Assembly: GCF_011390835.1 (NCBI RefSeq)
Contig: NZ_JAABRQ010000020.1
Span: 1-64,000 of the forward strand
Length of the DNA: 64,000 bases
Direction: 5' to 3'
Origin: Hydrogenophaga sp.
GTDB taxonomy: Bacteria > Pseudomonadota > Gammaproteobacteria > Burkholderiales > Burkholderiaceae_C
Shown: positions 8,976 to 47,784 of the stretch, piece after piece
Numbering within the stretch: position 1 is the stretch's first letter
Layout: every line of letters starts with the position of its first letter
Notes under the pieces: model-generated
Seen by the model: the letters and a program-made list of their open reading frames with translations, nothing else
What the model was told of the DNA's origin: nothing
The model's database searches: none
Translations under genes and position numbers: made by a program

Positions 8976-9011
8976 GGTGTGTTCCCTCCTAAGGGTAATC
9001 TTCTAGAAATG

Positions 9012-9038
9012 TTAGCACTCTATAGGAGGGAGTGCTAA
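9012..9038. promoter_or_regulatory. CIRCE operator (HrcA-binding inverted repeat) upstream of rpoH
   Basis: Perfect TTAGCACTC-N9-GAGTGCTAA on both strands, identical to the CIRCE consensus. It lies just upstream of the rpoH ribosome site, probably over or close to the promoter. HrcA-CIRCE control of rpoH is known from comparative genomics of betaproteobacteria. Confidence 0.95.
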
Positions 9039-25090: not shown

Positions 25091-25130
25091 AAAAAAAGCA
25101 AGGAGAGGCAGGTGCATACCTGGCATCTCC
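25091..25130 (-). terminator. Riboswitch-controlled terminator
   Basis: On the minus strand GGAGA pairs with TCTCC and an inner AGGT pairs with ACCT around an ATGC loop, followed by seven T residues. The 5' arm uses the conserved GGGAGA end of the aptamer, so aptamer folding and terminator are mutually exclusive, as expected for a switch that turns expression on when guanidine binds. Confidence 0.85.
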
Positions 25131-25224
25131 CGGGCTTTTGTCCCTCCGTGGAACCGCGCGATCGCGGCCGACTGCTCTCGGACCAGACGGTCTTGACGCT
25201 GATGGTCAAGACCCGGAACCCTAG
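25126..25224 (-). promoter_or_regulatory. Guanidine-I riboswitch (ykkC/yxkD subtype 1), copy 1
   Basis: Minus-strand leader with all conserved blocks of the guanidine-I aptamer in order: CTAGGGTTCCG, CTGGTCCGAGAG, then ACGGAGGGACAAAAGCCC followed by GGGAGA. The variable stems pair well (GTCTTGAC with GTCAAGAC; GCCGCGATCGCGCGG region). It precedes the permease gene by 54 bp with a terminator between. Bound guanidine should allow transcription of the transporter and degradation genes. Confidence 0.96.
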
Positions 25225-25403
25225 CGGTCTTCAAGTCCAGCGCGGCAAATGTTCACAGCGCCTCTCTCTGGTACCTTGCTCAGCAAAATCAGTGCCAGTC
25301 CTGCTGGAGGGGGGGCACATCTTTCGCGCCCCGAAATGGGGCGATTCGATTCAATGTGCACCGAAAAGATGCGGTCGCGCCGGTTGGCAAAGGACTGCAG
25401 TGG

Positions 25404-25820
25404 TCACTTGCGCACATGCAGGCGGGTGAAGGCCCAAGTTGTCGACAACCAGCTGTCCAGCGCTTCACCCAGGTGATTTTTCAGTCCGCTGGCCGGGTCG
25501 TCGGTGCGGACCCAGAAAATCAGATCGGCCTCGTGCTCGGGCTGGCTGGTGGGAAACAGGTAGAGGCACACCAGTACCTGGTTATCAGTCCAGGCTGACC
25601 ACGGTGTAGGTGTACCAGCTGCAGGTCTGGAATCCCTTCTGGTGCCAGGCAACGTCGATCAGGTGCTGCTTAAGGATGGGGTCCTCGCGCGGCCAGTCGC
25701 TACCGGGAAAAGGCCGAGCAGGTCGGTGCGGCTACTCATGACGGCGTCGTAGTCTTTCACCAGATCGTGGATGGTGAGCGGACGCACGCGCAGGCGCTGT
25801 GTCTCGAATCCGGCCGGGGT
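25404..25820 (-). pseudogene. Broken GNAT acetyltransferase gene
   Basis: Three frames joined end to end give a continuous GNAT-like protein: an N-terminal FETQRLRVRPLTIHDL, then GSDWPREDP and LIDVAWHQKGF one frame over, then DNQVLVCLYLFPTSQPEHEAD and a C-terminal tail ending HVRK. Frameshifts lie near 25708 and 25591, the second followed at once by a stop. No start codon remains: a TAA sits just before the first block. It lies between the two riboswitch operons in the same orientation and could be a decayed last gene of the upstream one. Confidence 0.8.
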
Positions 25821-25848
25821 CGGACCTTAACTGGTTTCTAGGCATGCT

Positions 25849-26619
25849 TCATGGCTCGATCCCGCTCTGAGAGGCCACCCGCCATGGGGTGGGCATTTCC
25901 TCGCCAAACGCAACGACGGCTTCCCCCTGAACCCCCAATTCGAAGTGGAAAGGAAACACCTGATGTTCCAGCAGCGGCAGGGATGAGCACTCAATGGTCC
26001 AGATGCTATCTTTCAATCGCCCAAAGCTGATTTCCATCGCGAGCAGTGGGCCGGTCAGGAGCGGATGGCGGGCGAGCACTGTCGCGAGATCTTCGTCAGG
26101 AAGGGTGTCTTCGGGCCATGCGGTGCGCCGGGGACGTACGCGCACAAGGTGGCTGCCGGAGATCAGGATACGCTCGTTTGTCAGTTCCCCCGCCGCATCC
26201 AGGCCCAGCAGCACCAGTTGTCGCCCCACTGAGTCGGGCAACCGTTCCCAGACTTCGAGATACCGACCATGAATCCCGGTTTCGATGACCCGGTGCGATC
26301 CCTCGAACACCATGTGGCCGGCGTCCGGTGTGGAGCGAGCAGGCTGCAAGTCGACTTGCCGATGCCAGGTGCAGATCTCGGGCTGGTCGCCAAGGGCGGG
26401 CGTGATTTCGGTGACCCCGCAGAAGCCTTGCTGTTGTGCCAGACCGGTGGCTTCGGCCCTGTCGAGGTTGACGGGCACGCGAAGGTCGGCATGCCATTGG
26501 CTGGTTTGAAGCCATCGCACCCAGGTGGTGGTGTCCCGCCCTTCGGGCGTTTCCAGCAAGGTACGGGTCCACACGCCGTGGTAGCGGTCTGGGACCGGGT
26601 CAAACGCAGGTGTGCTCAT
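25849..26619 (-). CDS. Uncharacterised beta-rich protein (HRI1/lipocalin-like pattern)
   Basis: 256 aa. The start at 26619 overlaps the lactonase stop (ATGA). The start YHGVWTRTLLETPEGRDTTTW (in parts, residues 12-32), alternating hydrophobic strands and many Trp and Arg residues suggest a calycin-like beta barrel, as in proteins grouped with yeast HRI1; I hold this loosely. No catalytic motif is visible. Last intact gene of the upstream riboswitch operon, so it may bind or process a small molecule of the pathway. Confidence 0.6.
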   Translation of the reverse strand: MSTPAFDPVPDRYHGVWTRTLLETPEGRDTTTWVRWLQTSQWHADLRVPVNLDRAEATGLAQQQGFCGVTEITPALGDQPEICTWHRQVDLQPARSTPDAGHMVFEGSHRVIETGIHGRYLEVWERLPDSVGRQLVLLGLDAAGELTNERILISGSHLVRVRPRRTAWPEDTLPDEDLATVLARHPLLTGPLLAMEISFGRLKDSIWTIECSSLPLLEHQVFPFHFELGVQGEAVVAFGEEMPTPWRVASQSGIEP

Positions 26620-27422
26620 GTGATCGGGATCGGAAACACTGGAAGGTTTCTGTAGAACGCCATGTCGTGGTTGGGCCAGAGCCAAGCGTCGGTGTCACGC
26701 GCCAGCGCCTTGAGCTTGCGTATGCTCTCCACCGCGAGCTGTTCCTGGTTCTGCCAGAGGCCGCCCGGTGCGATCTCGTCGTCGATGTTCTCCTGCAGGT
26801 CGGCCGCGTCGCCGGCCAGCAAGATCGGTCGTCCCTGCGGCAGCTCTACCCACAAGGACATGTGCCCGGCGGTGTGGCCGGGTGTGGTCACCGCCTGGAC
26901 TCCGGGTGCGACCGCATATTCGCCGCGTTGCAGACGGAACTGCAGGGGGGTGCCGTCTTCGTCCAGCAGTTCATCCGCGAACACCACCGGGTCGTCGCCA
27001 GCCTTGGCCGCGGCCAGTTCGTCGTGTTGCAGATGGATCTCGGCACCGCATCCGCAGCGGCGCAGATCGCGCAGGCCACCAGCGTGATCGAAATGCAGAT
27101 GACCGATGAAGATCAGGTCCACATCCTGGGGCGTGAGGCCCAGGCGGGCCAGATGGTACGGGATGCGCTGGTCCTCGCTCATCTCCGGCGCACCAAAAAT
27201 GAAGGTCTCTGGGTCGTAGTGCCTGGCGCGCAAGATCGGGTCGGCAATCTTGCGGTGGTCGCAACCGACGTCGTAGAGAATTCGGCCGTTGCGGGTCTCG
27301 ATCAGGTAGGCCAGGATGGGCGCGTCGATCATCTGTCCCTCGCCGCGGTGGCGTGTCGAGATCGACTTGTCGTAGCGGTGGGTGGCGGTCAGCAGCGGCC
27401 ACAGTCGGGTTGCCGAAGTCAT
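26616..27422 (-). CDS. Metallo-beta-lactamase-fold hydrolase (N-acyl-homoserine-lactonase-like)
   Basis: 268 aa from the ATG at 27422 with AAGGAG nine bases upstream. The dinuclear metal site is complete: HLHFDHAGG near 110-118 (HxHxDH), the His of TPGHTAGH near 180, the Asp of LAGDAADL near 200 and the His of PNHDM near 251. Sequence spacing fits the AHL-lactonase branch, which opens lactone rings. In this operon a lactone, or a cyclic amide or ester from a guanidino compound, is a more likely substrate than a quorum signal; that is inference. Confidence 0.85.
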   Translation of the reverse strand: MTSATRLWPLLTATHRYDKSISTRHRGEGQMIDAPILAYLIETRNGRILYDVGCDHRKIADPILRARHYDPETFIFGAPEMSEDQRIPYHLARLGLTPQDVDLIFIGHLHFDHAGGLRDLRRCGCGAEIHLQHDELAAAKAGDDPVVFADELLDEDGTPLQFRLQRGEYAVAPGVQAVTTPGHTAGHMSLWVELPQGRPILLAGDAADLQENIDDEIAPGGLWQNQEQLAVESIRKLKALARDTDAWLWPNHDMAFYRNLPVFPIPIT

Positions 27423-27438
27423 GGTCCGGTGAGGCTCC

Positions 27439-28107
27439 TTAGGGTGCGACCGGCTGCTGGACTTCCATCGCACTCACGCAGCGATGGGTGTCCCAGACCT
27501 GCCCGAAGATGCCGCCCTCCACGGCGATCATCGCCAGCGCGGGCGCCTGCAGCTCAGCCTGGCTGGCCGCCGTGGCATCGCCGATGGTGATGCATTCGAA
27601 GCCCCGGTCTACCGCCTCGCGCAGGGTCGAGTGCACACAGACTTCGGTGGTCACGCCGCAGAGCACGAGCCTACGGATGCCGAAGGCGTTGAGCAAGGGG
27701 GCGAGCGCGGTCATATGGAAGGCGCTGTAGCCCGGTTTGTCGATCACGTGTTCACCGGCTAACGGGCGCAGCGCGGGTACGAAGTCGTGGCCTTGTTCGC
27801 CGCGCACCAGCAGACGGCCCAGTGGCCCGGCACTGCCAATGGGTGCTCCCGCACTCACGCTGCGGGCCATCTTGACCGGCGGACAGTCCGACAGGTCGGG
27901 CAGGTGGCCTTCCCGCGTGTGAATCACCAGCAGGCCTGCTGCGCGGGCGGCACCCAGCAACCGCTGGACCTGACCCACCACGACCTGCATTCGCGCGATG
28001 TCCAGGCCAGCCTGGTGCGCGTAGCCGCCGGGGCTGCAGAAGTCTCGCTGCATGTCGATGACGACGAGCGCGGTGGTCGCGGGTTCGAGCTGAAGCGGAT
28101 CGCTCAT
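27439..28107 (-). CDS. Isochorismatase-like cysteine hydrolase, biuret/guanylurea-hydrolase-like
   Basis: 222 aa. The triad of the fold is visible: Asp18 in VVIDMQRDF, Lys122 or near in VIDKPGYSAF, and the Cys of GVTTEVCVHST near 155. The stretch HTREGHLPDLSD, the GRLLVRGE loop and IDKPG are shared with biuret hydrolase (BiuH), triuret hydrolase and, by report, guanylurea hydrolase, which act on urea- or guanidine-derived amides. A BiuH-type reaction would yield allophanate for the allophanate hydrolase encoded 10 kb away; a guanylurea reaction would yield guanidine for the carboxylase. Start overlaps the creatininase stop by 4 bp. Confidence 0.88.
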   Translation of the reverse strand: MSDPLQLEPATTALVVIDMQRDFCSPGGYAHQAGLDIARMQVVVGQVQRLLGAARAAGLLVIHTREGHLPDLSDCPPVKMARSVSAGAPIGSAGPLGRLLVRGEQGHDFVPALRPLAGEHVIDKPGYSAFHMTALAPLLNAFGIRRLVLCGVTTEVCVHSTLREAVDRGFECITIGDATAASQAELQAPALAMIAVEGGIFGQVWDTHRCVSAMEVQQPVAP

Positions 28108-28898
28108 GGCGCGGGGCGGTTGAACCCGGTGCTGATGGCCTCTGCCATGCGGCGTGCGACTTCATTCGCTAGCAGTTTCCCCTTGGTGGCGTCTGCGCCA
28201 CGCGCCGACGACAGCACACCCGAGGGAGGTACCCAGTCGGTGCGTGGCGGGTACATGTCGTAGGGCGGGAACTCGGCCGGACCATCGCCCGGCAGCAGAT
28301 CCATGCGCACCAGACTGGGGTGGTGATGCAGCATCATCGAGGTCTCGAGTACCGCCGCGTGCTCGAGCGCGAAGCCGGGAAAGCCATCGGGGAACACGTC
28401 ACCCAGCGTCTCGGGCGTCATGAAGTCCCAGTACTCCAGGCGCATCACCTGCAGCACACAGGCGGCATCGGCTGCGCGGGCGTCGCGCAGGCCGAGGTCG
28501 ATGCCTTCGATCAGGAACCACTGGTTTTCGTAGTGGCCGTTGACCACGACGAGCTTGTCCACCCCATGGCGTGCAAACTCGCGGACCGCGTCTCGCACCT
28601 GCCCGATCAGCGTGGCCGCGTCGACACTGGTGGTACCGCAAAAGTGCTGCCCTCCGCCGCACTTGGGTTGCGACTTGTAGCCGTAGCTCAGGGTCGGCGC
28701 GACCAGCCCGCGGACCTGGGCCGCGGTGTCGGCGGCCACGGCGCTGGCCAGTAGGCCGTCGGTGCCCAGGGGCAGGTGTGGACCGTGCTGCTCCAGCGCA
28801 CCGACCGGCAGCAACACCGGCGGCTGCTCGGTCCGGATTCGGTGCTGGTAGTCGATCCAGGACAGCTGGTTCATCCAGAGGGTGGGGGTGGTGCTCAT
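28104..28898 (-). CDS. Creatininase-family amidohydrolase, close to true creatininase
   Basis: 264 aa, the normal length. Metal and active-site motifs: PVGALEQHGPHLPLGTDG near 28-45 (Glu, His, Asp ligands), NGHYEN near 120 and EHAAVLETS near 180. Beyond these, long stretches such as YGYKSQPKCGGGQHF, GTTSVDAATL and the EGIDL that follows NGHYEN match authentic creatinine amidohydrolases rather than the wider family. Creatininase opens the cyclic guanidine creatinine to creatine. No creatinase or sarcosine oxidase gene lies in this operon, so the ring substrate may be a different cyclic guanidine. Starts inside the EamA stop codon. Confidence 0.9.
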   Translation of the reverse strand: MSTTPTLWMNQLSWIDYQHRIRTEQPPVLLPVGALEQHGPHLPLGTDGLLASAVAADTAAQVRGLVAPTLSYGYKSQPKCGGGQHFCGTTSVDAATLIGQVRDAVREFARHGVDKLVVVNGHYENQWFLIEGIDLGLRDARAADAACVLQVMRLEYWDFMTPETLGDVFPDGFPGFALEHAAVLETSMMLHHHPSLVRMDLLPGDGPAEFPPYDMYPPRTDWVPPSGVLSSARGADATKGKLLANEVARRMAEAISTGFNRPAP

Positions 28899-29842
28899 GG
28901 CGTGCGGGTTCCGGTGGCGGCAATGGGGGGGGGAACGGGTTCGTTGGCTGGGGGGAGCAGGGCCTCGGCCAGTGCGGCCACGGCGATCAGCGCGCCGCCG
29001 GCCCAACCGAGGGGCGTGAGGCGCTCACCACCAAAGGCGATGGCGCTTCCCACCGCGACGACGAGTTCGGCCAGAAGGATCACGCCGGCGCGGCTGCTCT
29101 CCAAGTGGCTCACGCCATATTGCCAGGTCACGGTGGCGAGCAGCATCCAGCCAAAGCCGTAAGCCAGAAGAGCCAGCCACAGCAGCGGACCGATGCTGGC
29201 CAGGACATCCGGGAGCGCACGGCCGGTGAGCCCTGTCGCAATTGCCGAGAGCAGTCCGCAGCCGATGAAGACAGCGAAGGTCTTGGTGCGCAGCGGCACG
29301 CGGTGGGCCGCGCGCGCAATGACGTTGTTGGCGGCAAACGCGAAGCCGGCCGATAGCGAGAGTGCATCGACCCAGGTGAAGGCCAGCACCTCAGCGCCGC
29401 CGATTCCCGGTCCGCCCAGCACCAGCCACAGACCCACGATGGCGCCAGCCACCGCCACCCAGCGCGCGGGTGGGATCCGCTCCTTCAGGAACAACCAGCC
29501 ACCGAGCACCGACCACACCGGCGAGAGGTAGAACAGGAACATCACCCGCGCCACGTCGCCCAGCATGATGGCGTTGACGAAGGACGTATTGGCCCAGCCG
29601 CCCACCACGACGAGCGTCAGCACCAGACCCCACTGGGCGCGCCATGCGGCACGATCTCGCCAGAGCAGTGCTGTCGCGAGCACGCCCACCGAACCGTATG
29701 TCAGCAAGGACACTTGGGGACCGCTAAGACCCTGGGCGATGAAGCCCTTCAGCGGTATCCAGGTCAGGCCCCAGAGAGTGGCGGAGAACAGCAGAACGCC
29801 AGTTGCCAAGCGGTCGGTGGGGCTGTCTGGCAGCAGGTTCAT
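28895..29842 (-). CDS. EamA/DMT-family transporter
   Basis: 315 aa with about ten membrane helices in two EamA repeats (first ATLWGLTWIPLKGF near 20-33; second starting near 165). Start set at 29842, eleven bases after the SDR stop; the longer frame begins inside the SDR gene. DMT members move small metabolites, and the related SMR branch exports guanidinium. It may import a substrate or export an intermediate of the pathway. Overlaps the creatininase gene by 4 bp. Confidence 0.88.
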   Translation of the reverse strand: MNLLPDSPTDRLATGVLLFSATLWGLTWIPLKGFIAQGLSGPQVSLLTYGSVGVLATALLWRDRAAWRAQWGLVLTLVVVGGWANTSFVNAIMLGDVARVMFLFYLSPVWSVLGGWLFLKERIPPARWVAVAGAIVGLWLVLGGPGIGGAEVLAFTWVDALSLSAGFAFAANNVIARAAHRVPLRTKTFAVFIGCGLLSAIATGLTGRALPDVLASIGPLLWLALLAYGFGWMLLATVTWQYGVSHLESSRAGVILLAELVVAVGSAIAFGGERLTPLGWAGGALIAVAALAEALLPPANEPVPPPIAATGTRTP

Positions 29843-29852
29843 GGGCTGTTCT

Positions 29853-30611
29853 TCAGGGCATGACCGAGCCGCCGTTCGGGCCCAGCACCTGCCCACAGTA
29901 AAAGCGCGAGAGGTCCGATGCCAGGAACAGCGCCGTGGCAGCGATCTCCTGGGCCTCGCCCAGCCGGTGCAGCGGGATGTCCAGCTCTTTCTCCATCCAC
30001 TCAGGACTCATCTGCTCCAACGACACCATGGCCGTGGCTACGGCGCCGGGTGCAATGGCATTGACGCGAATGGTGGGCGCGAACTCCTGCGCCAGCGATT
30101 TGGTCAGGCCGATCACGCCGGCCTTGGCGGTGCAGTAGGGCGCGAACTGCGCGCGCCCGGTGATGCCGAGATCGGATGCGATGTTGACGATCACCCCGCT
30201 GCCCTGCGCCACCATACCTGGCAGCACGGCGCGGCACATGAGAAACACCGAGCCGAGGTCGGTGGCTATCATGCGCTGCCAGTCGGCGTCGGTTGTGTCG
30301 AGGAAGGGCTTCTCTTGCAGGATGCCGGCGTTGTTGACCAGCACATGGATGTGGCCCACGCTCTGCAGCGCTTCCATAACCAGCCGTTTCGCGTCAACCG
30401 GATCGCTCACGTCGGCGCTGATGGCCAGCGCCTGGCCGCCTAGGGCTTCGATGGCATGCACCACCGCGGCAGCATCTTCAGGCTGGTTCCAGTGGTTGAC
30501 CACCACGCGCGCACCCGCCTGCGCAAACAGCAGGGCTGTGGCCCGACCGATGCCGGTGGCCGCTCCGGTGATCAGCGCGGTCTGGCCCGCCAGTGACAGG
30601 GAAACGCTCAT
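29853..30611 (-). CDS. SDR-family oxidoreductase (first catabolic SDR)
   Basis: 252 aa. Rossmann glycine motif TGAATGIG near 15, NNAG near 92 (LVNNAGIL), catalytic Ser near 143 and YCTAKAG near 157-163 with Tyr and Lys. An NAD(P)-dependent alcohol or carbonyl oxidoreductase. It starts inside the stop codon of the previous SDR (ATGA). The two SDRs share only family motifs, so they probably catalyse successive or different steps. Confidence 0.88.
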   Translation of the reverse strand: MSVSLSLAGQTALITGAATGIGRATALLFAQAGARVVVNHWNQPEDAAAVVHAIEALGGQALAISADVSDPVDAKRLVMEALQSVGHIHVLVNNAGILQEKPFLDTTDADWQRMIATDLGSVFLMCRAVLPGMVAQGSGVIVNIASDLGITGRAQFAPYCTAKAGVIGLTKSLAQEFAPTIRVNAIAPGAVATAMVSLEQMSPEWMEKELDIPLHRLGEAQEIAATALFLASDLSRFYCGQVLGPNGGSVMP

Positions 30612-31387
30612 GCCATCACCTCGCCATGGCTCGCCACGATGCATTGGCCTGTCAGCGATCGGGCACCGCTGCTGGCGAGAAAAAGGAAAACGCCAGCAAT
30701 GTCAGCGGGGGAGAGCATGCCGGGCAGAGCCTGGCGCGAAAGGATCTCTCGCTCGACTTCGGCCTCGCTGCGGCCTTGCTCCTGCGCCATGGCGGCGAGC
30801 GAGCGCAGCGCGGCCTCGGTGCGGACCCAGCCGGGGCAGACCGCGTTCACGCGGATGCCGCGTGGACCCAGCTCCAGGGCCAGCGAACGCGTGAGGCCCA
30901 CCACCGCGTGCTTGCTGGCGACATAGGCCGAAAAGCCGGACACGCCGATGCGGCCCCAGATGGAAGACTGGTTGATGACGCTGGCGCCACTGGGCAGCAG
31001 CGGCAACAGCGCTTGCGTGAGCCGAACCATGGAGGTGACGTTGTTGTCGAGCAAGCTAGCCCAGCGGTCCATGGCATCGGGCGCGGCGTCCATCAGCGGC
31101 GTGGGGTACTCCGTGCCGGCGTTGTTCACCAGCACGTCGAGCGTGCCCCATTGGTCGCGCACCTGCGTGGCCACGGTGGCCACCTGTGCGGCGTTGCCGA
31201 GGTCGCACTCGGCCGCCTTGGCGCCGAGTTCGCTGGCCAGTGCCTGCAGGGCGCTCCCGGTGCGGTCGAGCAGCATCAGCCGGGCGCCCTGTGCGGCAAA
31301 GGCTCGCGCCAGGCCATCACCAATTCCACCCGCCGCGCCCGTGATGAGCACGGTCTTGTCTTGCAGGCCGTAGCTTACGGAGGACAT
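30608..31387 (-). CDS. SDR-family oxidoreductase (second catabolic SDR)
   Basis: 259 aa from the ATG at 31387, one base beyond the hydroxylase stop; an upstream frame to 31492 is only overlap with that gene. Motifs: TGAAGGIGDG near 14-23, LVNNAGTEY near 86, Ser of QSSIWG near 140 and YVASKHA near 153-159. NAD(P)-dependent dehydrogenase or reductase. Tight packing behind the membrane hydroxylase suggests it oxidises the hydroxylated product. Confidence 0.88.
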   Translation of the reverse strand: MSSVSYGLQDKTVLITGAAGGIGDGLARAFAAQGARLMLLDRTGSALQALASELGAKAAECDLGNAAQVATVATQVRDQWGTLDVLVNNAGTEYPTPLMDAAPDAMDRWASLLDNNVTSMVRLTQALLPLLPSGASVINQSSIWGRIGVSGFSAYVASKHAVVGLTRSLALELGPRGIRVNAVCPGWVRTEAALRSLAAMAQEQGRSEAEVEREILSRQALPGMLSPADIAGVFLFLASSGARSLTGQCIVASHGEVMA

Positions 31388-31388
31388 G

Positions 31389-32399
31389 TCAGACGGCGGT
31401 GAGGAACGACACGCCGACAGCACCCAGAAAACCATCGGCGCGATGAGGTGTGCCGGGTGGCTGCACCTCGCCGTAATTGCTGGCCAGCACACGTTTGACG
31501 CGGTTGATGTGGAAGCTGCGCAGCAGTTCGCCCACAGTGATCACCTGCGCGTAGTTGTCGGGGTAGAGCTCGCGGTGGAACGCGGGCAGGCGGTACCACG
31601 GCGCGGTGGGCCGCTCGTGGTGGGCGTTGTGGAAGCCGAAGTTGAGCCACACCATGTTGAACCACTTCGCGTCCAGGCTCACCACGTCGCTGTAGGTATT
31701 GGCCTGCTCGTAGGCGCGGTCACGCACTTTGTCCTTGGGGATGGGCGTTTCGTCCAGGATGGGGTAGGCGTCGTAGGTGTGCTGGAAGCAGTCGGCAAAG
31801 CGCAGTACGGTGATGAAGACAAGGAAGGCCACGCCATACAGCACAAGCGCCTTGAGCGACCACCAGCCGAGCAAGGCGAGGGCAGCGATGCGCAACACGG
31901 CGGTACCCACGACGCGCAAGCGTGCTGACTTCTTCTGCTCGCTTATGAAGGGCATGGCCATCACGTAGCCGCGCATGACGAACTCCACCGCAGGGATGTA
32001 GGCCCATTCCAGCGCGAGCACCACACGGCGCACGAGAGGGTGGGCGCGCAGGAAAGCCTGAGAATCGAAGGTGATGACGTCGGCTCGTTCGACATGGTGG
32101 CGCATGTGTTTGCGGCGCATGTCGGCAAAGCTGGCGTAGCAGCTGCCGTTGATCCAGCTCATGAGGGTGCCCCAGCGCTCGTTGGCCTGGGGCGTGCGGA
32201 AGATGGCGTTGTGCGCGAATTCGTGGATAAAGTAGGCCGACCACACCAGCGTTTGTGCCACCAGCAGCACACCCAGTGCGTTTAGGAGCCAGCTCGTCTG
32301 CCCCAGCAGGGCAATGCCCGCAGGCCAACCTAGCACGGTGAGGCTGATGGCGGCGATATTCGGCCACACGCCGTCCTCGTATCGGAAAACCGGTTTCAT
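31389..32399 (-). CDS. Membrane di-iron fatty-acid-desaturase-family hydroxylase
   Basis: 336 aa from the ATG at 32399, preceded by AGAAGG. The three histidine boxes of the family are intact: HEFAH near 57-61, HMRHH near 98-102 and HNAHH near 257-261, with extra His in CFQHTYD. Four or more membrane helices surround them. Members use a di-iron centre and oxygen to desaturate or hydroxylate hydrophobic chains. In an operon under a guanidine switch, the best guess is oxidation of an alkyl or acyl guanidine; fatty-acid desaturation for the membrane is the alternative. Separated from the binding-protein gene by a strong hairpin. Confidence 0.85.
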   Translation of the reverse strand: MKPVFRYEDGVWPNIAAISLTVLGWPAGIALLGQTSWLLNALGVLLVAQTLVWSAYFIHEFAHNAIFRTPQANERWGTLMSWINGSCYASFADMRRKHMRHHVERADVITFDSQAFLRAHPLVRRVVLALEWAYIPAVEFVMRGYVMAMPFISEQKKSARLRVVGTAVLRIAALALLGWWSLKALVLYGVAFLVFITVLRFADCFQHTYDAYPILDETPIPKDKVRDRAYEQANTYSDVVSLDAKWFNMVWLNFGFHNAHHERPTAPWYRLPAFHRELYPDNYAQVITVGELLRSFHINRVKRVLASNYGEVQPPGTPHRADGFLGAVGVSFLTAV

Positions 32400-32453
32400 G
32401 AAAATGCCTTCTGTAGTGATCGCTGTCGATGCCGGTTTCGGCAAACCGCATCA

Positions 32454-32485
32454 GCGCACCAGCGCCCGCGCGGGCACCGGTGCGC
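32454..32485 (-). other. Strong intercistronic hairpin after the binding-protein gene
   Basis: On the minus strand GCGCACC and GCCCGC pair with GCGGGC and GGTGCGC around a two- to three-base bulge. There is no T run. Hairpins placed after a substrate-binding-protein gene commonly stabilise its mRNA so that it outproduces the genes downstream. Confidence 0.6.
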
Positions 32486-32497
32486 CTGTCTCAAGGA

Positions 32498-33526
32498 TTA
32501 CTTGAGTGCCTTGACCAGGCTGGCGTCGAAGGTCGCCTCGGTCGCCGGGATTGTGGTGATCTGACCCTTGGCCTTGAGCAGTTGCGCAATGATCTCGCCG
32601 CTGGCGTAGTAGGAGGTGGTCTCCTTGGCGGGCAGGAAAGCCTTTGGCATCTCGGCCTTGGGGATGTTGTAGACGCCGGAGAGCTGTTCCTTCACTTCGA
32701 CGGCCGACACACCCATGAACTTGCCGATGATCTTGTTGGCCTCGTCGGGCTTGGCCTTCATGTAGGCAAGACCATCCAGATAGGCCTTCATGATGCCGGT
32801 GATTTCCGCTGGCTTGGCCTTGATGACCTTGTCGTCGAACACCAGCACATCGGCAATCAGCCCCGGCGCATCCTTGGAGGAAAACACCACCTTGAATTTC
32901 TTACCGCCACCCTGGCTGAGGATCTGCGACAAGCTCGGCTCGTAGGTCACGCCAATAGGCAGCTGGCCCGATGCCATGGCGGCGGGAACAGCCTCTGGCG
33001 TCATGCTGACAGGACTGATGTCTTTCTCGCCCAGTCCATTGATCTTGAGCGCATAAGAGAGCAAAAAGTCGCTGGGTGACAGCGGGTTGTAGCCCACCTT
33101 TTTGCCCTTGAAGTCGGTGACCTTGCTGATGCTGGCGTCGGCCACGATGGCGTCACCGCCATTGGAGTAGTCGATTGGCATGACCACTTTCATGTTGCGA
33201 CCAGCCGCGACCTGACCTACCACTTGGTCGTACGTCAGCATGCCGCCATCCACGGCGCCCGACGAGATGGCTGCTGGGATCAGCGCTGGGTCGTTGAAGA
33301 CCTGCAGCGAGACTTTGAGGTTGTATTTCTTATAGAGGTCGAGTGCTTCGGCAACGTAGAAAGGACCGTACCCGATCCACACCACGGTGGCGATTTTGAG
33401 CTGCGCGGGTGTTTGCGCAATGGCGGGTGCCAGCGCCAATGAGAGTGCCAGGCCCAGAGCCGGCTTGAGGAAGTGGTTGCGCCGCGAAGAAGGGCTGACG
33501 CAGGTGGGGGGACAAGCTTTTTTCAT
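32498..33526 (-). CDS. ABC transporter substrate-binding protein (NitT/TauT type)
   Basis: 342 aa. A signal peptide ends near residue 38 (ALSLALAPAIAQ); RRNHFLK just before the hydrophobic part hints at export by Tat, though the spacing is not classical. The mature part shows the NMT1/SsuA-like pattern (LKIATVVWIGYGPFYVAEALDL in parts, SSGAVDGGMLTYD, KVGYNPLSPSDFLL). It should capture the ligand in the periplasm. Its only visible partner permease and ATPase are 7.4 kb away in the next riboswitch operon. Shine-Dalgarno GGAG lies six bases before the ATG. Confidence 0.92.
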   Translation of the reverse strand: MKKACPPTCVSPSSRRNHFLKPALGLALSLALAPAIAQTPAQLKIATVVWIGYGPFYVAEALDLYKKYNLKVSLQVFNDPALIPAAISSGAVDGGMLTYDQVVGQVAAGRNMKVVMPIDYSNGGDAIVADASISKVTDFKGKKVGYNPLSPSDFLLSYALKINGLGEKDISPVSMTPEAVPAAMASGQLPIGVTYEPSLSQILSQGGGKKFKVVFSSKDAPGLIADVLVFDDKVIKAKPAEITGIMKAYLDGLAYMKAKPDEANKIIGKFMGVSAVEVKEQLSGVYNIPKAEMPKAFLPAKETTSYYASGEIIAQLLKAKGQITTIPATEATFDASLVKALK

Positions 33527-33576
33527 GGGGGCTCCGAGGTTGGTGAGGACATGCAGGAAGATCGATCAGCGATCGT

Positions 33577-33666
33577 TCTCCCGGGCTTTTGTCCCTCCGT
33601 GGAGCCTGCGATGAGGCCGGCACACTCTCGGACCAGACACTGCCGTGCAGACAGTCGGAACCCTAG
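33577..33666 (-). promoter_or_regulatory. Guanidine-I riboswitch (ykkC/yxkD subtype 1), copy 2
   Basis: Conserved blocks CTAGGGTTCCG, CTGGTCCGAGAG and ACGGAGGGACAAAAGCCC plus GGGAGA in the correct order on the minus strand, 51 bp before the binding-protein start. The variable stems differ completely from copy 1 (ACTG...CAGT instead of GTCTTGAC...). After the aptamer GGGAGA can pair with TCTTCC via CGATC/GATCG, but no T run follows, so the output may differ from copy 1. Confidence 0.95.
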
Positions 33667-34504
33667 TGCACCTGTGCGGTTGAGGAAACCGTGCGAATCA
33701 CGGATCTCTCTTCTTGCCCCAATGATGTGAGCAGAAAGCGTGCCAGGCTGATCTTCCAACCTTTTGCGGTCCCCGCGGCTGAATCGCACCAAAATGCGAC
33801 ATCTTGTCCAACCATCAACCGCTCAAGCCGTGCCATCTGCGCGTTATTGGTGCGTCTGTGCCGCTTTGATCGAGACCCGACGGCCGCTTCTTTGGGCTGT
33901 GCAACGCGAGCCAGTGACATCCTGGTTTTCGCTCGGGATCCGGCAGGTGGTTGTTCTGCCTTGAGCATTGAGGGCTCAGTGAGATGAACCTTTAGAAGTC
34001 CGGAGACTGCAGGGTCAAGCGTTGATAAACGACTCGCGCTCAGCGTGCTGATAGAAGTGCAGATGGCATTCAACATTCATTTAGCTCGACGGTGGATGGT
34101 GCGATCAGCGATATTTGAAGTCGACTCTTCAAGCGTGTACTTGGGCCGTAACAGGTTGATCGTCCGCTTTAGGCAGGTTGTGCGCGTGTCGGCTTAGTGT
34201 CGGCACCGCAAGTTCAGGTGGAAAAGAAGCAGTCGGCGGTGTCGCGCGGTCTGCCTAGCCCCCTCCTGTGCTGCAATGCCTTTTACAACTGCCGTTCGGA
34301 CCGTCGCCTGTCGCTGGGCACAGCTGCCGCTTGGTGCCAGTTAGAGTGAGTGCATTCGCCGCTGGCGACAGGCTCCAACCGCTGCATTTCGGCCACTCAG
34401 ATCACATCAGACATCGACTGCTGAGCGTCGAATCGGTCTGCTGCACGGAGTCTGCTTGCCAGAAGCGAGATGGTTGGTAGATCGGGGCGCCACCACCCTT
34501 CCGA

Positions 34505-36937: not shown

Positions 36938-38134
36938 TTGTTGTTACCAAATTTTTTGTCCTTTCGCGGTGGATTTCTGGCCGCGACGGGCCTGCTGCTG
37001 GCGCTGGGTGCACAGGCCGCTCCGCGCACGCCCACCAACGATGCCGAAGTGCTGGAAAAACTGCCCACCCGGGCGGGCGACAGCACGGCGCGCGAACTGA
37101 GCCGCCTGCGGGCGGCCCTGGTTCAGGCGCCGACCGACGAGGCCGCCGCCACCCAGCTGGCCTGGCGCTACTTCGATCTGGCGATGGCCCAGGGGGATCC
37201 CCGTTACATCGGTTACGCCGATGCTGTGGTGAGCCGTTTCCCGGCCACGAACAGCGCAGCGCTGCTGACCCTGCGCGGCATGCTGCGCCAGTACCGGCAC
37301 GATTTCGCCGGCGCATTAAGCGACCTCGACCAAGCGTTGAAACAAGACCCGGGCTACGCCAGCGCCCAGGCCTGGCGCGGCGCCATCTTTCTCGTGAAAG
37401 CCGACTACGCGGCAGCAGGGCAGGCCTGTGATGCGCTGCAACGCCTGGGGCGTGATGTGCTGGCGGGCGGCTGCCTGGGGCTGGTTCAGGCCTATGGCGG
37501 CCAGCTCGATGCGGGCTATCAGACGCTACAAAAAAGCCTGGGCCTGGCCGGTTTTCCCGAAGACAAGCTCTGGCTGCAGACCCGCCTGGGTGAGGTGGCG
37601 GCCTGGCGCGGCCAGCCGGCGCAGGCTGAGGCCCATTACCGCGCGGCACTGGCCCTGGGGCGGGACGACGTGTACCTGTTGGCCGCCTGGACCGACTTTT
37701 TGCTCGACGCCGGACGGCCCGCCGAGGTGGTGCAGTGGCTGCAGGCTTGGGAGGCGTCCGACAGCCTGCTGCTGCGCCTGGCCGAAGCGGGGACCGCGCT
37801 GCAACTGCCCGACGCCGCGCGCTACCGCCAGACGATGGCCGACCGCTTTGCCGCCGCCCGGGCCCGAGGCGACACCACACACCGCGCAGAGGAGGCGCGC
37901 TTCGAGCTGCGCTTGCGCCAGGACGCGAAAAGGGCGGTGGGTCTTGCGCGCGACAACTACGCTGTCCAGCGCGAGCCGCGCGATGCCCGCATCCTGCTGG
38001 AGGCCGCGATTGCCGCGCAAGACAGCGCCAGCGCCCAGCCGGCGCGCGACTGGTTGCGCAGCAGCGGCTTTGAAGACGCCCGCCTGCGCCGCCTCGGCCA
38101 GGCCTCAGGCACCGATACTGGGGCCACACGATGA
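36938..38134 (+). CDS. Exported TPR-repeat protein
   Basis: 398 aa from a TTG; no better start is visible. Residues 1-28 look like a signal peptide (LAATGLLLALGAQAA). The rest is helix-pair repeats of TPR type, clearest at AGALSDLDQALKQDPGYASAQAWRG (in parts, near 124-148) and GQPAQAEAHYRAALALGRDD near 225. It probably acts as a periplasmic or membrane scaffold. It overlaps the following HupE/UreJ-like gene by 4 bp, which ties the two together. Confidence 0.75.
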   Translation: MLLPNFLSFRGGFLAATGLLLALGAQAAPRTPTNDAEVLEKLPTRAGDSTARELSRLRAALVQAPTDEAAATQLAWRYFDLAMAQGDPRYIGYADAVVSRFPATNSAALLTLRGMLRQYRHDFAGALSDLDQALKQDPGYASAQAWRGAIFLVKADYAAAGQACDALQRLGRDVLAGGCLGLVQAYGGQLDAGYQTLQKSLGLAGFPEDKLWLQTRLGEVAAWRGQPAQAEAHYRAALALGRDDVYLLAAWTDFLLDAGRPAEVVQWLQAWEASDSLLLRLAEAGTALQLPDAARYRQTMADRFAAARARGDTTHRAEEARFELRLRQDAKRAVGLARDNYAVQREPRDARILLEAAIAAQDSASAQPARDWLRSSGFEDARLRRLGQASGTDTGATR

Positions 38135-39255
38135 ACTGGCGCCGCTTTTTGATCTGCTGCTGGCTGCTGCTCTGCGGCCCGGTGCTGGCCCACAAGGCCA
38201 GTGACAGCTATTTGAGACTCGATGTGCAGGGCGCGCAGGTGAGCGGGCAGTGGGACATTGCCTTGCGCGACATCGACTTTGCGCTCGGACTGGATGCCGA
38301 CGGCAACGGCGAGATCACCTGGGGCGAACTGCGCGCCCGACACGACGCGGTGGCGGCCTGGGCCTTCAGCGCCCTGACGCTGGAGCGCGGCGGCGCCTGC
38401 CCGTTGCAGGTCACGCAGCACCAGGTCGACGAGCACACCGATGGCACCTACGCGGTGCTGACGTTCGCCGGCACCTGCCCGGCCGAGACGGGCGATCTGG
38501 CACTGGACTACCGCCTGCTGTTCGATCTGGACGGTTTGCACCGGGGCCTGCTGCGGCTGGACCTGGATGGTCTGACGCATTCGACCGTGATCGCGCCCGA
38601 TAGCCGTCGCCAGACCTTTTCGGGTGAAAGCGTGTCCCGGCTGGTGCAATTTGGCCGGTTTCTGGTGCAAGGTGTTTGGCACATCTGGATCGGGTTCGAC
38701 CACATCCTGTTTTTGCTGTCGCTGTTGCTGCCGGTGGTGATGGTGCGCGTGAACGGCGGCTGGCGCGGTGTGGACCGCCTCGGCGAGTCGGTGCGAGAGG
38801 TGCTGTGGGTGGTCACCTCGTTCACCGTGGCGCATTCCATCACCTTGTCGCTCGCCGCCCTGGGCTTCATCTCGCTGCCGTCGCGGCTGGTCGAGTCGGC
38901 GATTGCCCTGTCGGTGGTGCTAGCGGCGTTCAATAACATCGTGCCGCTGTTCAACCGGCGGCGCTGGCTGGTGGCGTTTGTGTTTGGCCTGATCCATGGC
39001 TTCGGTTTTGCCAGCGTGCTGGCCGAGCTCGGCCTGCCGCAGGACACCCTGGTGCTGAGCCTGGTGGCTTTCAACCTGGGTGTGGAAGCCGGCCAGCTCA
39101 CCATCGTGGTGGCCTTGTTGCCGGTGATTTTCTGGCTGCGCCACACGGCCTTTTACCGCTGGGGCGTGCTGGTGGGTGGCTCGCTGCTGATCATGCTGCT
39201 GGCCCTGGTGTGGCTGGCCGAGCGGGTGCTGGACCTGAAGCTGATCAGCGCCTGA
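38131..39255 (+). CDS. HupE/UreJ-family membrane protein
   Basis: 374 aa. A signal peptide ends at AHKASDSYL; the first 170 residues form an extracytoplasmic domain, including DADGNGEITW, an EF-hand-like loop that could bind calcium. The second half has about seven helices with the family's GVWHIWIGFDHILFLLSLLLP (in parts, near 183-203), HSITLSLAA near 232 and LIHGFGFASVLAE near 287, whose His residues suit nickel or cobalt transport. Metal transport is the family assumption; no hydrogenase or urease genes are in the window. Confidence 0.82.
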   Translation: MNWRRFLICCWLLLCGPVLAHKASDSYLRLDVQGAQVSGQWDIALRDIDFALGLDADGNGEITWGELRARHDAVAAWAFSALTLERGGACPLQVTQHQVDEHTDGTYAVLTFAGTCPAETGDLALDYRLLFDLDGLHRGLLRLDLDGLTHSTVIAPDSRRQTFSGESVSRLVQFGRFLVQGVWHIWIGFDHILFLLSLLLPVVMVRVNGGWRGVDRLGESVREVLWVVTSFTVAHSITLSLAALGFISLPSRLVESAIALSVVLAAFNNIVPLFNRRRWLVAFVFGLIHGFGFASVLAELGLPQDTLVLSLVAFNLGVEAGQLTIVVALLPVIFWLRHTAFYRWGVLVGGSLLIMLLALVWLAERVLDLKLISA

Positions 39256-46208: not shown

Positions 46209-46224
46209 GTAGGACAGCGGCTAC
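46209..46224. promoter_or_regulatory. Inverted repeat GTAGG-N6-GCTAC upstream of the crystallin-like gene
   Basis: GTAGG-acagcg-GCTAC, one mismatch from perfect, 120 bp before the gene start. Same architecture as sites at 50385 and 55415; candidate binding site of the NarL-type regulator encoded next door. Confidence 0.5.
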
Positions 46225-46344
46225 GCTGCGCCGAGACGACGTCCGATGGACCGCCTGCGAGACGACTTGCACACTGGTGCGATGGCAAGCATCCCGGGGG
46301 CCATGTCGATCCCCGGCACTGTCTGCTCCTCAACGGGGAATCGC

Positions 46345-47784
46345 ATGCGAAGAATCTCAAGGCTTTGGCTGGCCGTGCTCGGGTTCACTATGGCCGGTCA
46401 AGCAGCGGCCCAGGTCACCTTGTACGAGCGAGACGGATTTCAGGGCCGCTCCGTCACAACCAGCGAGCCCATCAGCAACCTGGGCCGCTCGGGTTTCAAG
46501 GGCAGCGTGTCGTCGGTCACTGTCCAGGGCGATCGGTCGGATCGCTGGGAGGTCTGTGAGGACCAACGCTATCGCGGCCGCTGCGCCATTTTGCGACCCG
46601 GCGACTACCCTTCGCTGGCAGCCATGGGTTTGAACGATCGGGTCTCGTCGGTGCGCGCCGTCGCGCGCGATGCCCGGTATAACGACGACCGCTACGCGCC
46701 AGCGCCACCGCCATCGCCAGCACAGGCGAATCAGATCGTGTTTTACGAACACGAGGGTTTCAAAGGCCGCAGCCTCACGGTCGACGCAGCGCTGGACGAC
46801 TTCCGCCGCAGCGGCTTCAATGACAGCGCCTCGTCGGTCGTGGTCATCGGCGAGCGCTGGGAGGTTTGCCAGGATATTCGCTACGCTGGCCGCTGCTTCG
46901 TGCTGCGCCCGGGCCAGTATGCGTCGCTGGCCGCGATGGGTCTGGGCGACCGCGTCTCTTCGGTGCGCATGGTGAGCGAATCGGCTCGTGTCGATGACAG
47001 GCGCTATGCCCCGATGCAGCAGGTCGAGCCGGTCAGCCAGGTGGTCTTCTATGAACACGAGGGCTTCGAGGGTCGCAGTTTCACGGCCGACGCAGCCGTT
47101 GGCGATTTCCGCCGCAGTGGCTTCAATGACCGGGCGTCATCGGCGGTGGTTCGCGGCGAACGCTGGGAGGTGTGCGACCAGGCGGGCTACGTGGGCCGCT
47201 GCACCGTGCTGCGCCCGGGACAATACGCCTCGCTGACCGCCATGGGTCTGAACGACCGCGTCTCGTCGGTGCGTGCGGCGAGTGGGTCGGTACGCATCGA
47301 AGACGGTCGTTACGCGCCGGCACCAGTGGCGGTGGGCGACTACGGCAGACGCCAGTACGAACAGACATACGAAGCCAGCATCACCTCGGTTCGTGCCGTG
47401 GTCGAAGACGCCGGCGAGCGCTGCTGGGTTGAACAACAACAGGTGGCGCAAGAGGGCCGCAGCAGCAACGTTCCCGGGGCCTTGATCGGGGCCGTGATCG
47501 GTGGAGTCCTCGGCCATCAGGTCGGCGGCGGCAGTGGCAAAGATCTGGCCACTGGCGTGGGTGCCGTCGCCGGGGCGGTCATCGGTGCCAACAGCGGCAG
47601 CTTGGGTGGCGGCCAGCAAACCGCGACACAGGATGTGCGGCGCTGCGTGTCGGCGCCTGGCCAGGGTCGTCCCGCGTACTGGGACGTGACCTACAACTTC
47701 CGCGGCGTCGAGCATCGGATGCAGATGACGAAGCCACCTGGCGCCACGGTGACGGTCAACGAACGGGGCGAACCGCGCGTTTGA
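46345..47784 (+). CDS. Exported triple beta/gamma-crystallin protein with glycine-zipper tail
   Basis: 479 aa. Signal peptide 1-22 (cut after AGQAAA). Three beta/gamma-crystallin-like modules at about 23-106, 130-210 and 233-312, each with the FYEHEGF/GRS start, a conserved RWEVC-x8-GRC pair of Cys and an MGL-DRVSSVR end. Modules 2 and 3 are nearly identical, so the gene grew by internal duplication. A glycine-zipper 2TM segment follows at about 377-425 (GALIGAVIGGVLGHQVGGGSG in parts). It probably sits in the outer membrane or periplasm; calcium binding or envelope protection is inferred from the modules. Confidence 0.88.
   Translation: MRRISRLWLAVLGFTMAGQAAAQVTLYERDGFQGRSVTTSEPISNLGRSGFKGSVSSVTVQGDRSDRWEVCEDQRYRGRCAILRPGDYPSLAAMGLNDRVSSVRAVARDARYNDDRYAPAPPPSPAQANQIVFYEHEGFKGRSLTVDAALDDFRRSGFNDSASSVVVIGERWEVCQDIRYAGRCFVLRPGQYASLAAMGLGDRVSSVRMVSESARVDDRRYAPMQQVEPVSQVVFYEHEGFEGRSFTADAAVGDFRRSGFNDRASSAVVRGERWEVCDQAGYVGRCTVLRPGQYASLTAMGLNDRVSSVRAASGSVRIEDGRYAPAPVAVGDYGRRQYEQTYEASITSVRAVVEDAGERCWVEQQQVAQEGRSSNVPGALIGAVIGGVLGHQVGGGSGKDLATGVGAVAGAVIGANSGSLGGGQQTATQDVRRCVSAPGQGRPAYWDVTYNFRGVEHRMQMTKPPGATVTVNERGEPRV

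What the first reader, a model, noticed from the sequence alone, without database searches (positions are those of the whole stretch)
25849..33666. Riboswitch-controlled cassette for an unknown guanidino compound
A guanidine-I aptamer leads an operon with a membrane di-iron hydroxylase, two SDR dehydrogenases, an EamA transporter, a near-authentic creatininase, a BiuH/GuuH-like cysteine hydrolase, a lactonase-fold enzyme and a beta-barrel-like protein, nearly all with 4-bp overlaps. Seen: gene order, motifs, aptamer. Known: guanidine-I switches respond to free guanidine; creatininases act on cyclic guanidines; BiuH and guanylurea hydrolase act on urea or guanidine amides. Inferred: oxidation, ring or amide opening and hydrolysis of a larger guanidine compound, ending in guanidine, biuret or allophanate handled by the next operon. 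I know of no described pathway with this gene set.
Basis: partly seen in the sequence, partly recalled or inferred. Interest (0 to 1): 0.92.

Follow-up and report, generated by a model that had tools for sequence, protein, structure and literature searches.

The report
Riboswitch-controlled alkylguanidine breakdown gene cassette
A set of genes switched by guanidine probably strips the alkyl group (most likely a methyl group) from substituted guanidines with a membrane iron oxygenase, so that the freed guanidine can serve as nitrogen source; this would be a second, unrelated enzyme solution to a reaction first described in 2025.

Summary
Four of the seven junctions among those eight overlap by 4 bp, not nearly all. 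A second aptamer heads a guanidine carboxylase operon without its own binding protein.

The key part is the last gene, A9. It is homologous to proteins that elsewhere sit directly behind a 2-oxoglutarate dioxygenase in guanidine carboxylase operons, the place of MgdL, the N-(hydroxymethyl)guanidine lyase published in 2025. The residues matching MgdL's catalytic D49 and R51 are kept. Here a desaturase-type di-iron protein stands in for the dioxygenase.

Of 80 fetched relatives of the hydroxylase, 71 have the aptamer within 1.7 kb upstream; A9 is present in 55 of 57 with at least 6 kb downstream. SDR and creatininase-like genes come and go together (46 both, 17 neither, 1 exception, of 64).

Best reading: oxidative dealkylation of N-alkylguanidines, methylguanidine foremost, to guanidine. 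SDR plus creatininase probably form a second branch that makes and hydrolyses an acylguanidine. Substrate and reactions are inferred; nothing was assayed.

The parts
33576..33677 (-). Guanidine-I riboswitch aptamer heading the cassette
   Evidence: Rfam RF00442, 82.7 bits, gathering 63
32498..33526 (-). A1: periplasmic binding protein, NMT1/SsuA type (342 aa), probably for guanidine or alkylguanidine and probably shared with the ABC permease and ATPase of the next operon
   Evidence: Pfam NMT1 86.6 bits; in L098/L099 an A1-type protein is the binding protein encoded with perm and ATP in one operon
31389..32399 (-). A2: membrane di-iron hydroxylase of the fatty-acid-desaturase fold (336 aa); proposed N-alkylguanidine hydroxylase
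   Evidence: FA_desaturase 120.3 bits; three histidine boxes in 80 of 80 relatives and in the window protein
30608..31387 (-). A3: short-chain dehydrogenase 1 (259 aa)
   Evidence: adh_short_C2 196.3 bits; TGxxxGxG and YxxxK read
29853..30611 (-). A4: short-chain dehydrogenase 2 (252 aa); proposed hemiaminal (carbinolamine) oxidase
   Evidence: adh_short_C2 205.5 bits; TGxxxGxG and YxxxK read
28895..29842 (-). A5: EamA transporter (315 aa)
   Evidence: EamA 74.5 bits
28104..28898 (-). A6: creatininase-family hydrolase (264 aa); proposed acylguanidine hydrolase
   Evidence: TIGR04448 351.6 bits, cut-off 235; 1j2t match E 5e-71 with W replaced by F in the GF.G[WF]..EH stretch
27439..28107 (-). 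A7: isochorismatase-family (BiuH-like) cysteine hydrolase (222 aa)
   Evidence: BiuH model 249.6 bits, cut-off 370; PDB biuret hydrolase 6xjm E 6e-64
26616..27422 (-). A8: metallo-beta-lactamase-fold hydrolase (268 aa), lactonase-like, role unknown
   Evidence: Lactamase_B 64.2 bits; PDB AHL lactonases E 5e-30, 4-pyridoxolactonase 5e-24
25849..26619 (-). A9: homologue of MgdL, N-(hydroxymethyl)guanidine lyase (256 aa); D45 and R47 match MgdL D49 and R51
25125..25235 (-). Second Guanidine-I aptamer, heading the guanidine carboxylase operon
   Evidence: RF00442, 88.0 bits
16119..25072 (-). Neighbouring operon: permease (25072-24149), ATPase (24144-23284), UAAP1 and UAAP2 (the CgdA/CgdB families), urea/guanidine carboxylase (21570-17974), allophanate hydrolase (17900-16119)
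   Evidence: NCBIfam, several over cut-off: TIGR03425 321.9, TIGR03424 329.1, TIGR02712 1860.8, TIGR02713 787.8

Best explanation
The cassette takes up an N-alkylguanidine (methylguanidine or a close relative is most likely) and removes the alkyl group oxidatively. A1 and the ABC proteins of the next operon import it. A2, a membrane di-iron hydroxylase, hydroxylates the carbon attached to nitrogen and gives a hemiaminal such as N-(hydroxymethyl)guanidine. A9, a homologue of MgdL, splits the hemiaminal into guanidine and an aldehyde. In cassettes that also carry SDR and creatininase-like genes, including this one, part of the hemiaminal is instead oxidised to an N-acylguanidine (N-formylguanidine from methylguanidine), whose acyl-guanidine bond is then hydrolysed by A6 and possibly A7. 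Free guanidine is the signal for both riboswitches and the substrate of the guanidine carboxylase operon. Shown by computation: gene content, the aptamers, homology of A9 to the MgdL-position proteins, conserved residues, co-occurrence. Inferred: every substrate and every reaction.
For: (1) A profile of 26 A9 proteins finds, at E about 1e-48, proteins directly behind a 2OG-Fe(II) dioxygenase behind the carboxylase gene in L112 and L110, with a Guanidine-II aptamer just before that gene: the layout published for mgdH-mgdL (PMC12508155, sections 6 and 8 read). In the genus of G562, 14 of 61 genomes match, giving 17 loci; all 17 have a dioxygenase relative within 1.5 kb. In 12 of the 14 main-type loci the motif is D49-x-R51 counted from a Met start, MgdL's own numbering. 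(2) A profile of those proteins alone hits 65 of 11,939 ORFs of the cassette loci, every one an A9. D-x-R is present in 62 of 62 A9 ORFs. (3) The two oxygenases replace each other: the desaturase type is in 0 of 15 MgdH-type genomes; no close MgdH relative (67% or more) is in 7 cassette genomes plus G438, though G121 has two at 36-39%. (4) In L098 and L099 the order is aptamer, SBP, hydroxylase, A9, permease, ATPase, then the carboxylase genes, with no SDR, creatininase, BiuH or MBL; in L094 and L096 hydroxylase, MBL and A9 follow the allophanate hydrolase. So hydroxylase plus A9 is the smallest unit. (5) A9 in 55 of 57 loci with at least 6 kb downstream. (6) SDR and creatininase: 46 both, 17 neither, 1 creatininase only, 0 SDR only, of 64 loci; at least 6 changes on the hydroxylase tree, 4 forced by well-supported branches. 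(7) L166 is an isolated hydroxylase-SDR-creatininase trio. (8) Two near-complete genomes with SDR and creatininase have no A9 match at all: G151 and G846.
Against: No assay. The hydroxylase matches no characterised family above a cut-off (CrtW 36.7 bits of 350, DesA 31.9 of 500, GntB 28.9 of 380) and no PDB chain at E 0.1 or below. A simple demethylation needs only two enzymes, so the extra six genes are not explained by it; A5, A7 and A8 have no firm role. Some Hydrogenophaga cassettes are followed by a further ABC transporter (an amino-acid-type one where I annotated it, L023), and L161-L164 carry two hydroxylases: both hint at a larger substrate. With kinship taken into account the SDR-creatininase link is 4 of 4 independent pairs, sign test 0.125, not significant. 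9 of 80 loci lack the aptamer within 1.7 kb: 4 have too little upstream sequence, L070 has it 3.0 kb upstream before perm-ATP-SBP, L059 lies in a fused operon, and L095-L097 have none before the hydroxylase. L166 has no Guanidine-I aptamer. G846, used as an A9-less case, has its BiuH gene in two pieces.
Confidence: 0.62

Rival explanations
1. The full nine-gene cassette is for a larger or cyclic guanidino compound (creatinine, glycocyamidine, a guanidino acid, an alkaloid). Hydroxylase and A9 remove an N-alkyl group or side chain; the creatininase-like enzyme opens a cyclic acylguanidine; BiuH-like and MBL hydrolases finish the fragments. Small cassettes without SDR and creatininase then serve simpler substrates.
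For: TIGR04448 over cut-off; two hydroxylases and three binding proteins in L161 and L162; a further ABC transporter behind the cassette in six Hydrogenophaga-type loci (ATPase matches of 129-135 bits in L020, L021, L023, L024, L026, L029; annotated as SBP_bac_3, permease and ATPase in L023); six extra genes beyond hydroxylase and A9.
Against: The residue that is W in creatininase 1j2t is F or Y in 60 of 61 cassette creatininases (the other not read; 1j2t alignment) and in 18 of 18 close homologues in the order, whereas the stand-alone relative L158 keeps W: creatinine itself looks unlikely. MgdL is reported to be narrow for N-(hydroxymethyl)guanidine (PMC12508155, section 8).
Confidence: 0.25
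2. Formaldehyde handling: A2 and A9 demethylate methylguanidine, and SDRs, MBL and hydrolases only detoxify or assimilate the aldehyde, without acting on the guanidine part.
For: V. boliviensis raises a formaldehyde detoxification pair on methylguanidine (PMC12508155, section 9 passage); MBL is the gene between hydroxylase and A9 in Methylotenera L094 and L096.
Against: The SDRs match no formaldehyde-dehydrogenase model among the best 25 listed; a creatininase-type hydrolase has no evident part in it; SDR and creatininase vary together.
Confidence: 0.08
3. The eight genes are an unrelated oxidation pathway (lipid or quorum signal) that happens to lie behind a guanidine riboswitch.
For: A2 is of the fatty-acid-desaturase fold and A8 is nearest to AHL lactonases in the PDB.
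Against: Aptamer within 1.7 kb upstream in 71 of 80 relatives; hydroxylase genomes all among Guanidine-I genomes, 7 of 7; A9 homologues next to the mgdH-type gene.
Confidence: 0.05

Closest known systems
MgdH-MgdL methylguanidine demethylation, Vreelandella boliviensis (PMC12508155, Nat Commun 2025)
   Same: Guanidine-I control, link to guanidine carboxylase genes, hydroxylase plus lyase order, MgdL-family protein with the D-x-R pair that mutation showed to be needed in MgdL
   Different: The oxygenase is an unrelated membrane di-iron protein, not a 2-OG dioxygenase; a dedicated binding protein, two SDRs, EamA, creatininase-like, BiuH-like and MBL proteins are added; two separate Guanidine-I aptamers in this window
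Creatininase (TIGR04448; PDB 1j2t)
   Same: E 5e-71, EQHGPH and NGHYEN stretches kept
   Different: W in the GF.GW..EH stretch is F or Y in the cassette family; gene context without creatinase or sarcosine oxidase in the operon
Biuret hydrolase BiuH (PDB 6xjm, NF050097)
   Same: Nearest solved relative, E 6e-64
   Different: 249.6 bits against a cut-off of 370
GntB, guanitoxin-pathway L-arginine hydroxylase (NF041365)
   Same: Same membrane di-iron superfamily, a guanidino substrate
   Different: 28.9 bits against a cut-off of 380; CrtW scores slightly higher; not a member
Guanidine carboxylase pathway (Gca, CgdA/B, AtzF)
   Same: Complete in the neighbouring operon
   Different: No binding protein in that operon; A1 of the cassette probably serves it

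Membership tests
Guanidine-I riboswitch (RF00442) | Covariance-model score over the gathering score | tested here: met
   82.7 and 88.0 bits, gathering 63
Guanidine-I riboswitch (RF00442) | Binds guanidine and switches expression | not testable with these tools
   needs in-line probing and a reporter
MgdH-MgdL methylguanidine demethylation | MgdL-family protein with D49 and R51 | tested here: met
   A9 homologous to MgdL-position proteins; D-x-R in 62 of 62 A9 ORFs. The V. boliviensis sequence itself was not compared
MgdH-MgdL methylguanidine demethylation | 2-OG/Fe(II) dioxygenase MgdH | tested here: not met
   no match at E 1e-10 in the window's genome; a desaturase-type protein takes its place
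MgdH-MgdL methylguanidine demethylation | Guanidine riboswitch and guanidine carboxylase genes | tested here: met
MgdH-MgdL methylguanidine demethylation | Converts methylguanidine to guanidine | not testable with these tools
   needs assays
Fatty-acid-desaturase-type membrane di-iron proteins | PF00487 over gathering score and three histidine boxes | tested here: met
   120.3 bits, cut-off 29.7; boxes in 80 of 80 relatives and in P0001
GntB arginine hydroxylase | NF041365 cut-off | tested here: not met
   28.9 bits of 380
Creatininase (TIGR04448) | NCBIfam cut-off | tested here: met
   351.6 bits, cut-off 235
Creatininase (TIGR04448) | Active-site tryptophan of the solved enzyme (W174, number recalled) | tested here: not met
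   F in the window; F or Y in 60 of 61 cassette copies
Biuret hydrolase BiuH | NF050097 cut-off | tested here: not met
   249.6 bits of 370
Quorum-quenching AHL lactonase AiiA | NF045699 cut-off | tested here: not met
   135.8 bits of 375
Guanidine carboxylase operon | carboxylase, UAAP1/UAAP2 (CgdA/B) and AtzF over cut-off | tested here: met

The most novel reading that the evidence does not exclude
Hydroxylase, SDR and creatininase-like protein form a three-step oxidative and hydrolytic route that cuts the carbon-nitrogen bond of N-alkylguanidines by way of an N-acylguanidine (N-formylguanidine from methylguanidine), yielding guanidine plus an acid rather than an aldehyde. It would be an alternative to the MgdL-type lyase, and cassettes that carry both would run both. 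The creatininase fold would have been turned from a cyclic to an open-chain acylguanidine, matching the W to F/Y change. Support: strict co-occurrence of SDR and creatininase, the isolated trio L166, and two genomes with SDR and creatininase but no A9.
Probability: 0.35. Interest if true: 0.85.

Novelty: new variant of a known kind. Interest (0 to 1): 0.72.

Why it matters
Guanidine riboswitches are widespread, but where free guanidine comes from is still largely open. If right, this cassette adds a common, mainly betaproteobacterial source: N-alkylguanidines, opened by a membrane di-iron oxygenase that replaces an unrelated soluble dioxygenase in front of the same lyase family. It would give a function to an uncharacterised desaturase clade, make A9/MgdL the marker by which alkylguanidine pathways can be found, and offer a testable new chemistry (acylguanidine formation and hydrolysis) for a creatininase-family enzyme.

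Tried and rejected
Creatinine as substrate: considered because A6 passes the creatininase cut-off, but the W to F/Y change and the lack of creatinase or sarcosine oxidase in the operon speak against it. GntB kinship as a guide to the substrate: scores far under the cut-off and below CrtW. PDB search for A2 and A9 profiles: no chain at E 0.1 (A2) or E 1 (A9). The minimal-core idea noted (SBP, hydroxylase, SDR2, creatininase) was dropped when L094-L099 showed hydroxylase plus A9 without SDR or creatininase. The idea that L168/G671 lacks A9 was dropped: A9 lies elsewhere in that genome. Apparent SDR-less creatininase loci L145, L146, L148, L151, L152 and L154 had short flanks; longer pieces showed SDR genes in L161-L165, while L160 is cut by its contig end. 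L092 stays as an exception.

Rows dropped before counts: 7 of 87 confirmed relatives were not kept by the tool; 16 of 80 loci were left out of the co-occurrence table as incomplete. 'Complete' there meant A9 present or at least 6 kb downstream, which favours A9; the unbiased count is 55 of 57. Of those 55, the A9 of L095 is weak (38 bits) and that of L097 a short fragment.

Literature: PMC12508155, abstract, sections 6, 8, 10 and search passages seen; PMC12186494, search passages only; other papers in listings only. Absence from print rests in the open-licence library; subscription journals were not searched.

Full report
What is there. The minus strand from 33677 to 25849 holds a Guanidine-I aptamer (82.7 bits, gathering score 63) and nine genes: binding protein A1, desaturase-type hydroxylase A2, SDRs A3 and A4, EamA transporter A5, creatininase-like A6, BiuH-like A7, metallo-beta-lactamase-fold A8 and A9. 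Four of the seven junctions A2-A9 overlap by 4 bp. A second aptamer at 25235 (88.0 bits) heads permease, ATPase, two urea-amidolyase-associated proteins (the CgdA/CgdB families), urea/guanidine carboxylase and allophanate hydrolase, with no binding protein. The whole-genome search found these two Guanidine-I copies only.

How widespread it is. The hydroxylase matches 7 of 200 genomes of the family at E 1e-20 or below, with 60-90% identity in the six relatives. A search of the family for Guanidine-I found it in 16 of 200, including all seven; chance for that is 5e-9 (the two draws carry the same handles where listed). One scan of 84,980 species genomes confirmed 87 relatives, of which 80 were kept: mostly Hydrogenophaga, Rhodoferax, Polaromonas, Aquabacterium and Oxalobacteraceae, also Thiomonas, Acidithiobacillus, Sulfuriferula, Methylotenera, Sphaerotilus, Leptothrix and Acidocella. 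The aptamer lies within 1.7 kb upstream of the hydroxylase in 71 of 80 (median distance 1270 bases). Of the nine others, L028, L052, L093 and L094 have less than 1.7 kb upstream sequence; L070 has it 3.0 kb upstream before perm-ATP-SBP; L059 (Tepidimonas) lies in a fused carboxylase operon whose aptamer is about 11 kb upstream; L095, L096 and L097 have none before the hydroxylase. Near-copies such as L077 and L078 are counted singly.

The key to function: A9. A profile of 26 A9 proteins has invariant residues including W17, W36, D45, R47, E113, E122 and W124. Searched over 369 genomes of the class it matches 7, with 8 places. In G562 and G369 the match (E 2e-48 and 2e-52) lies directly behind a 2OG-Fe(II) dioxygenase (DIOX_N and 2OG-FeII_Oxy over their cut-offs) behind the carboxylase gene, with a Guanidine-II aptamer at the start of that gene. 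This is the layout described for V. [quoted passage not shown] In the genus of G562, 14 of 61 genomes match, giving 17 loci; all 17 have a dioxygenase relative within 1.5 kb (181-822 bits). In 12 of the 14 main-type loci, counted from a Met, the motif falls on D49 and R51; the other two are longer before the motif, and three further loci are a second paralogue with D42. A profile of 13 such proteins alone returns 65 of 11,939 ORFs of the cassette loci, all A9, and the window's A9 at 88.9 bits. That test is not fully independent, since those proteins were first found with the A9 profile. The V. boliviensis sequence itself was not available to me.

The remaining class matches: window and G114 (cassettes), G438 (aptamer, hydroxylase, MBL, A9, EamA), a second place in G562 beside another dioxygenase (L113), G283 (A9 beside EamA, binding protein and permease, a CgdB match 7 kb on, no desaturase-type hydroxylase) and G411 (A9 beside a zinc alcohol dehydrogenase, hydroxylase on another contig). 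So two or more oxygenases pair with one lyase family. The desaturase type is in 0 of the 15 MgdH-type genomes searched, and no MgdH relative of 67% or more is in the seven cassette genomes or G438, while G121 has two at 36-39%.

Modules. With family profiles, 64 of 80 loci were complete enough to compare. Hydroxylase plus A9 is the smallest unit (L098, L099); hydroxylase, MBL and A9 follow the allophanate hydrolase in Methylotenera L094 and L096. A9 is in 55 of 57 loci with at least 6 kb downstream. SDR and creatininase: 46 both, 17 neither, one creatininase only (L092), none SDR only. The Fisher value of 1e-14 ignores kinship; on the hydroxylase tree creatininase needs at least 6 changes, 4 forced by well-supported branches, and SDR goes the same way in 4 of 4 independent pairs in most random pairings, too few for significance (0.125). 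BiuH, MBL and EamA vary more freely. In 300 genomes of the order, 20 have a creatininase relative at E 1e-30, with 21 places; the 18 of 66% identity or more all lie beside other cassette genes. G782 has, besides a full cassette, an isolated hydroxylase-SDR-creatininase trio without a Guanidine-I aptamer (L166). L161-L164 carry two hydroxylases. Tepidimonas G151 and G846 have SDR and creatininase but no A9 match anywhere; G846 has its BiuH gene in two pieces.

Interpretation. Hydroxylase plus MgdL-type lyase gives oxidative dealkylation with release of guanidine, the ligand of both riboswitches; the class I switch of V. boliviensis is reported to bind guanidine but not methylguanidine (PMC12508155, section 6), so the pathway would be induced by its product. 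The linked SDR and creatininase suggest oxidation of the hemiaminal to an N-acylguanidine and hydrolysis of the acyl-guanidine bond. That is the kind of bond creatininase cuts in creatinine (recalled chemistry), and the hemiaminal is long-lived enough (half-life over 1 h, section 8) to be an enzyme substrate. The change of the creatininase tryptophan to F or Y in 60 of 61 cassette copies fits a changed substrate. A1 probably feeds the ABC permease and ATPase of the next operon: in L098 and L099 A1-type protein, permease and ATPase are encoded in one operon.

What remains open: the true alkyl group, the roles of A5, A7 and A8, and whether the full cassette is for a larger compound, as the extra transporter behind some Hydrogenophaga cassettes (L023) and the doubled hydroxylases could mean. 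No paper with this gene set was found in the open library.

Noticed in passing
A9 family (window 25849-26619 and relatives): 7 of 27 aligned members match Pfam HRI1, a yeast protein family, at E 0.01 or below (best 2.5e-6); the window's own match is under the curated cut-off. HRI1 could be a remote relative of a guanidine lyase family.
   Followed up: partly
L113 (G562:C1:4002000-4021999), 8805-10384: A second, diverged A9 paralogue directly behind a shorter 2OG-Fe(II) dioxygenase (268 aa) followed by ABC transporter genes; it may act on another N-alkyl compound.
   Followed up: partly
L166, 6836-9417: Isolated hydroxylase-SDR-creatininase trio between a transcription-repair coupling factor and proteins without family, with no Guanidine-I aptamer in 18 kb.
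   Followed up: partly
L161-L164: Cassettes with two different desaturase-type hydroxylases and up to three binding proteins.
   Followed up: partly
L090, 7220-7316 (-) and 8676-8772 (+): Two divergent Guanidine-I aptamers back to back in Acidithiobacillus, one for the carboxylase operon and one for the cassette.
   Followed up: no
window 25400-25848: The stretch between A9 and the second aptamer looks by eye like a decayed coding region without a long open frame.
   Followed up: no
window 46213-47784: 523-aa protein with three beta/gamma-crystallin matches and a glycine zipper.
   Followed up: no
window 38131-39255: HupE/UreJ-type membrane protein behind a protein of no known family.
   Followed up: no
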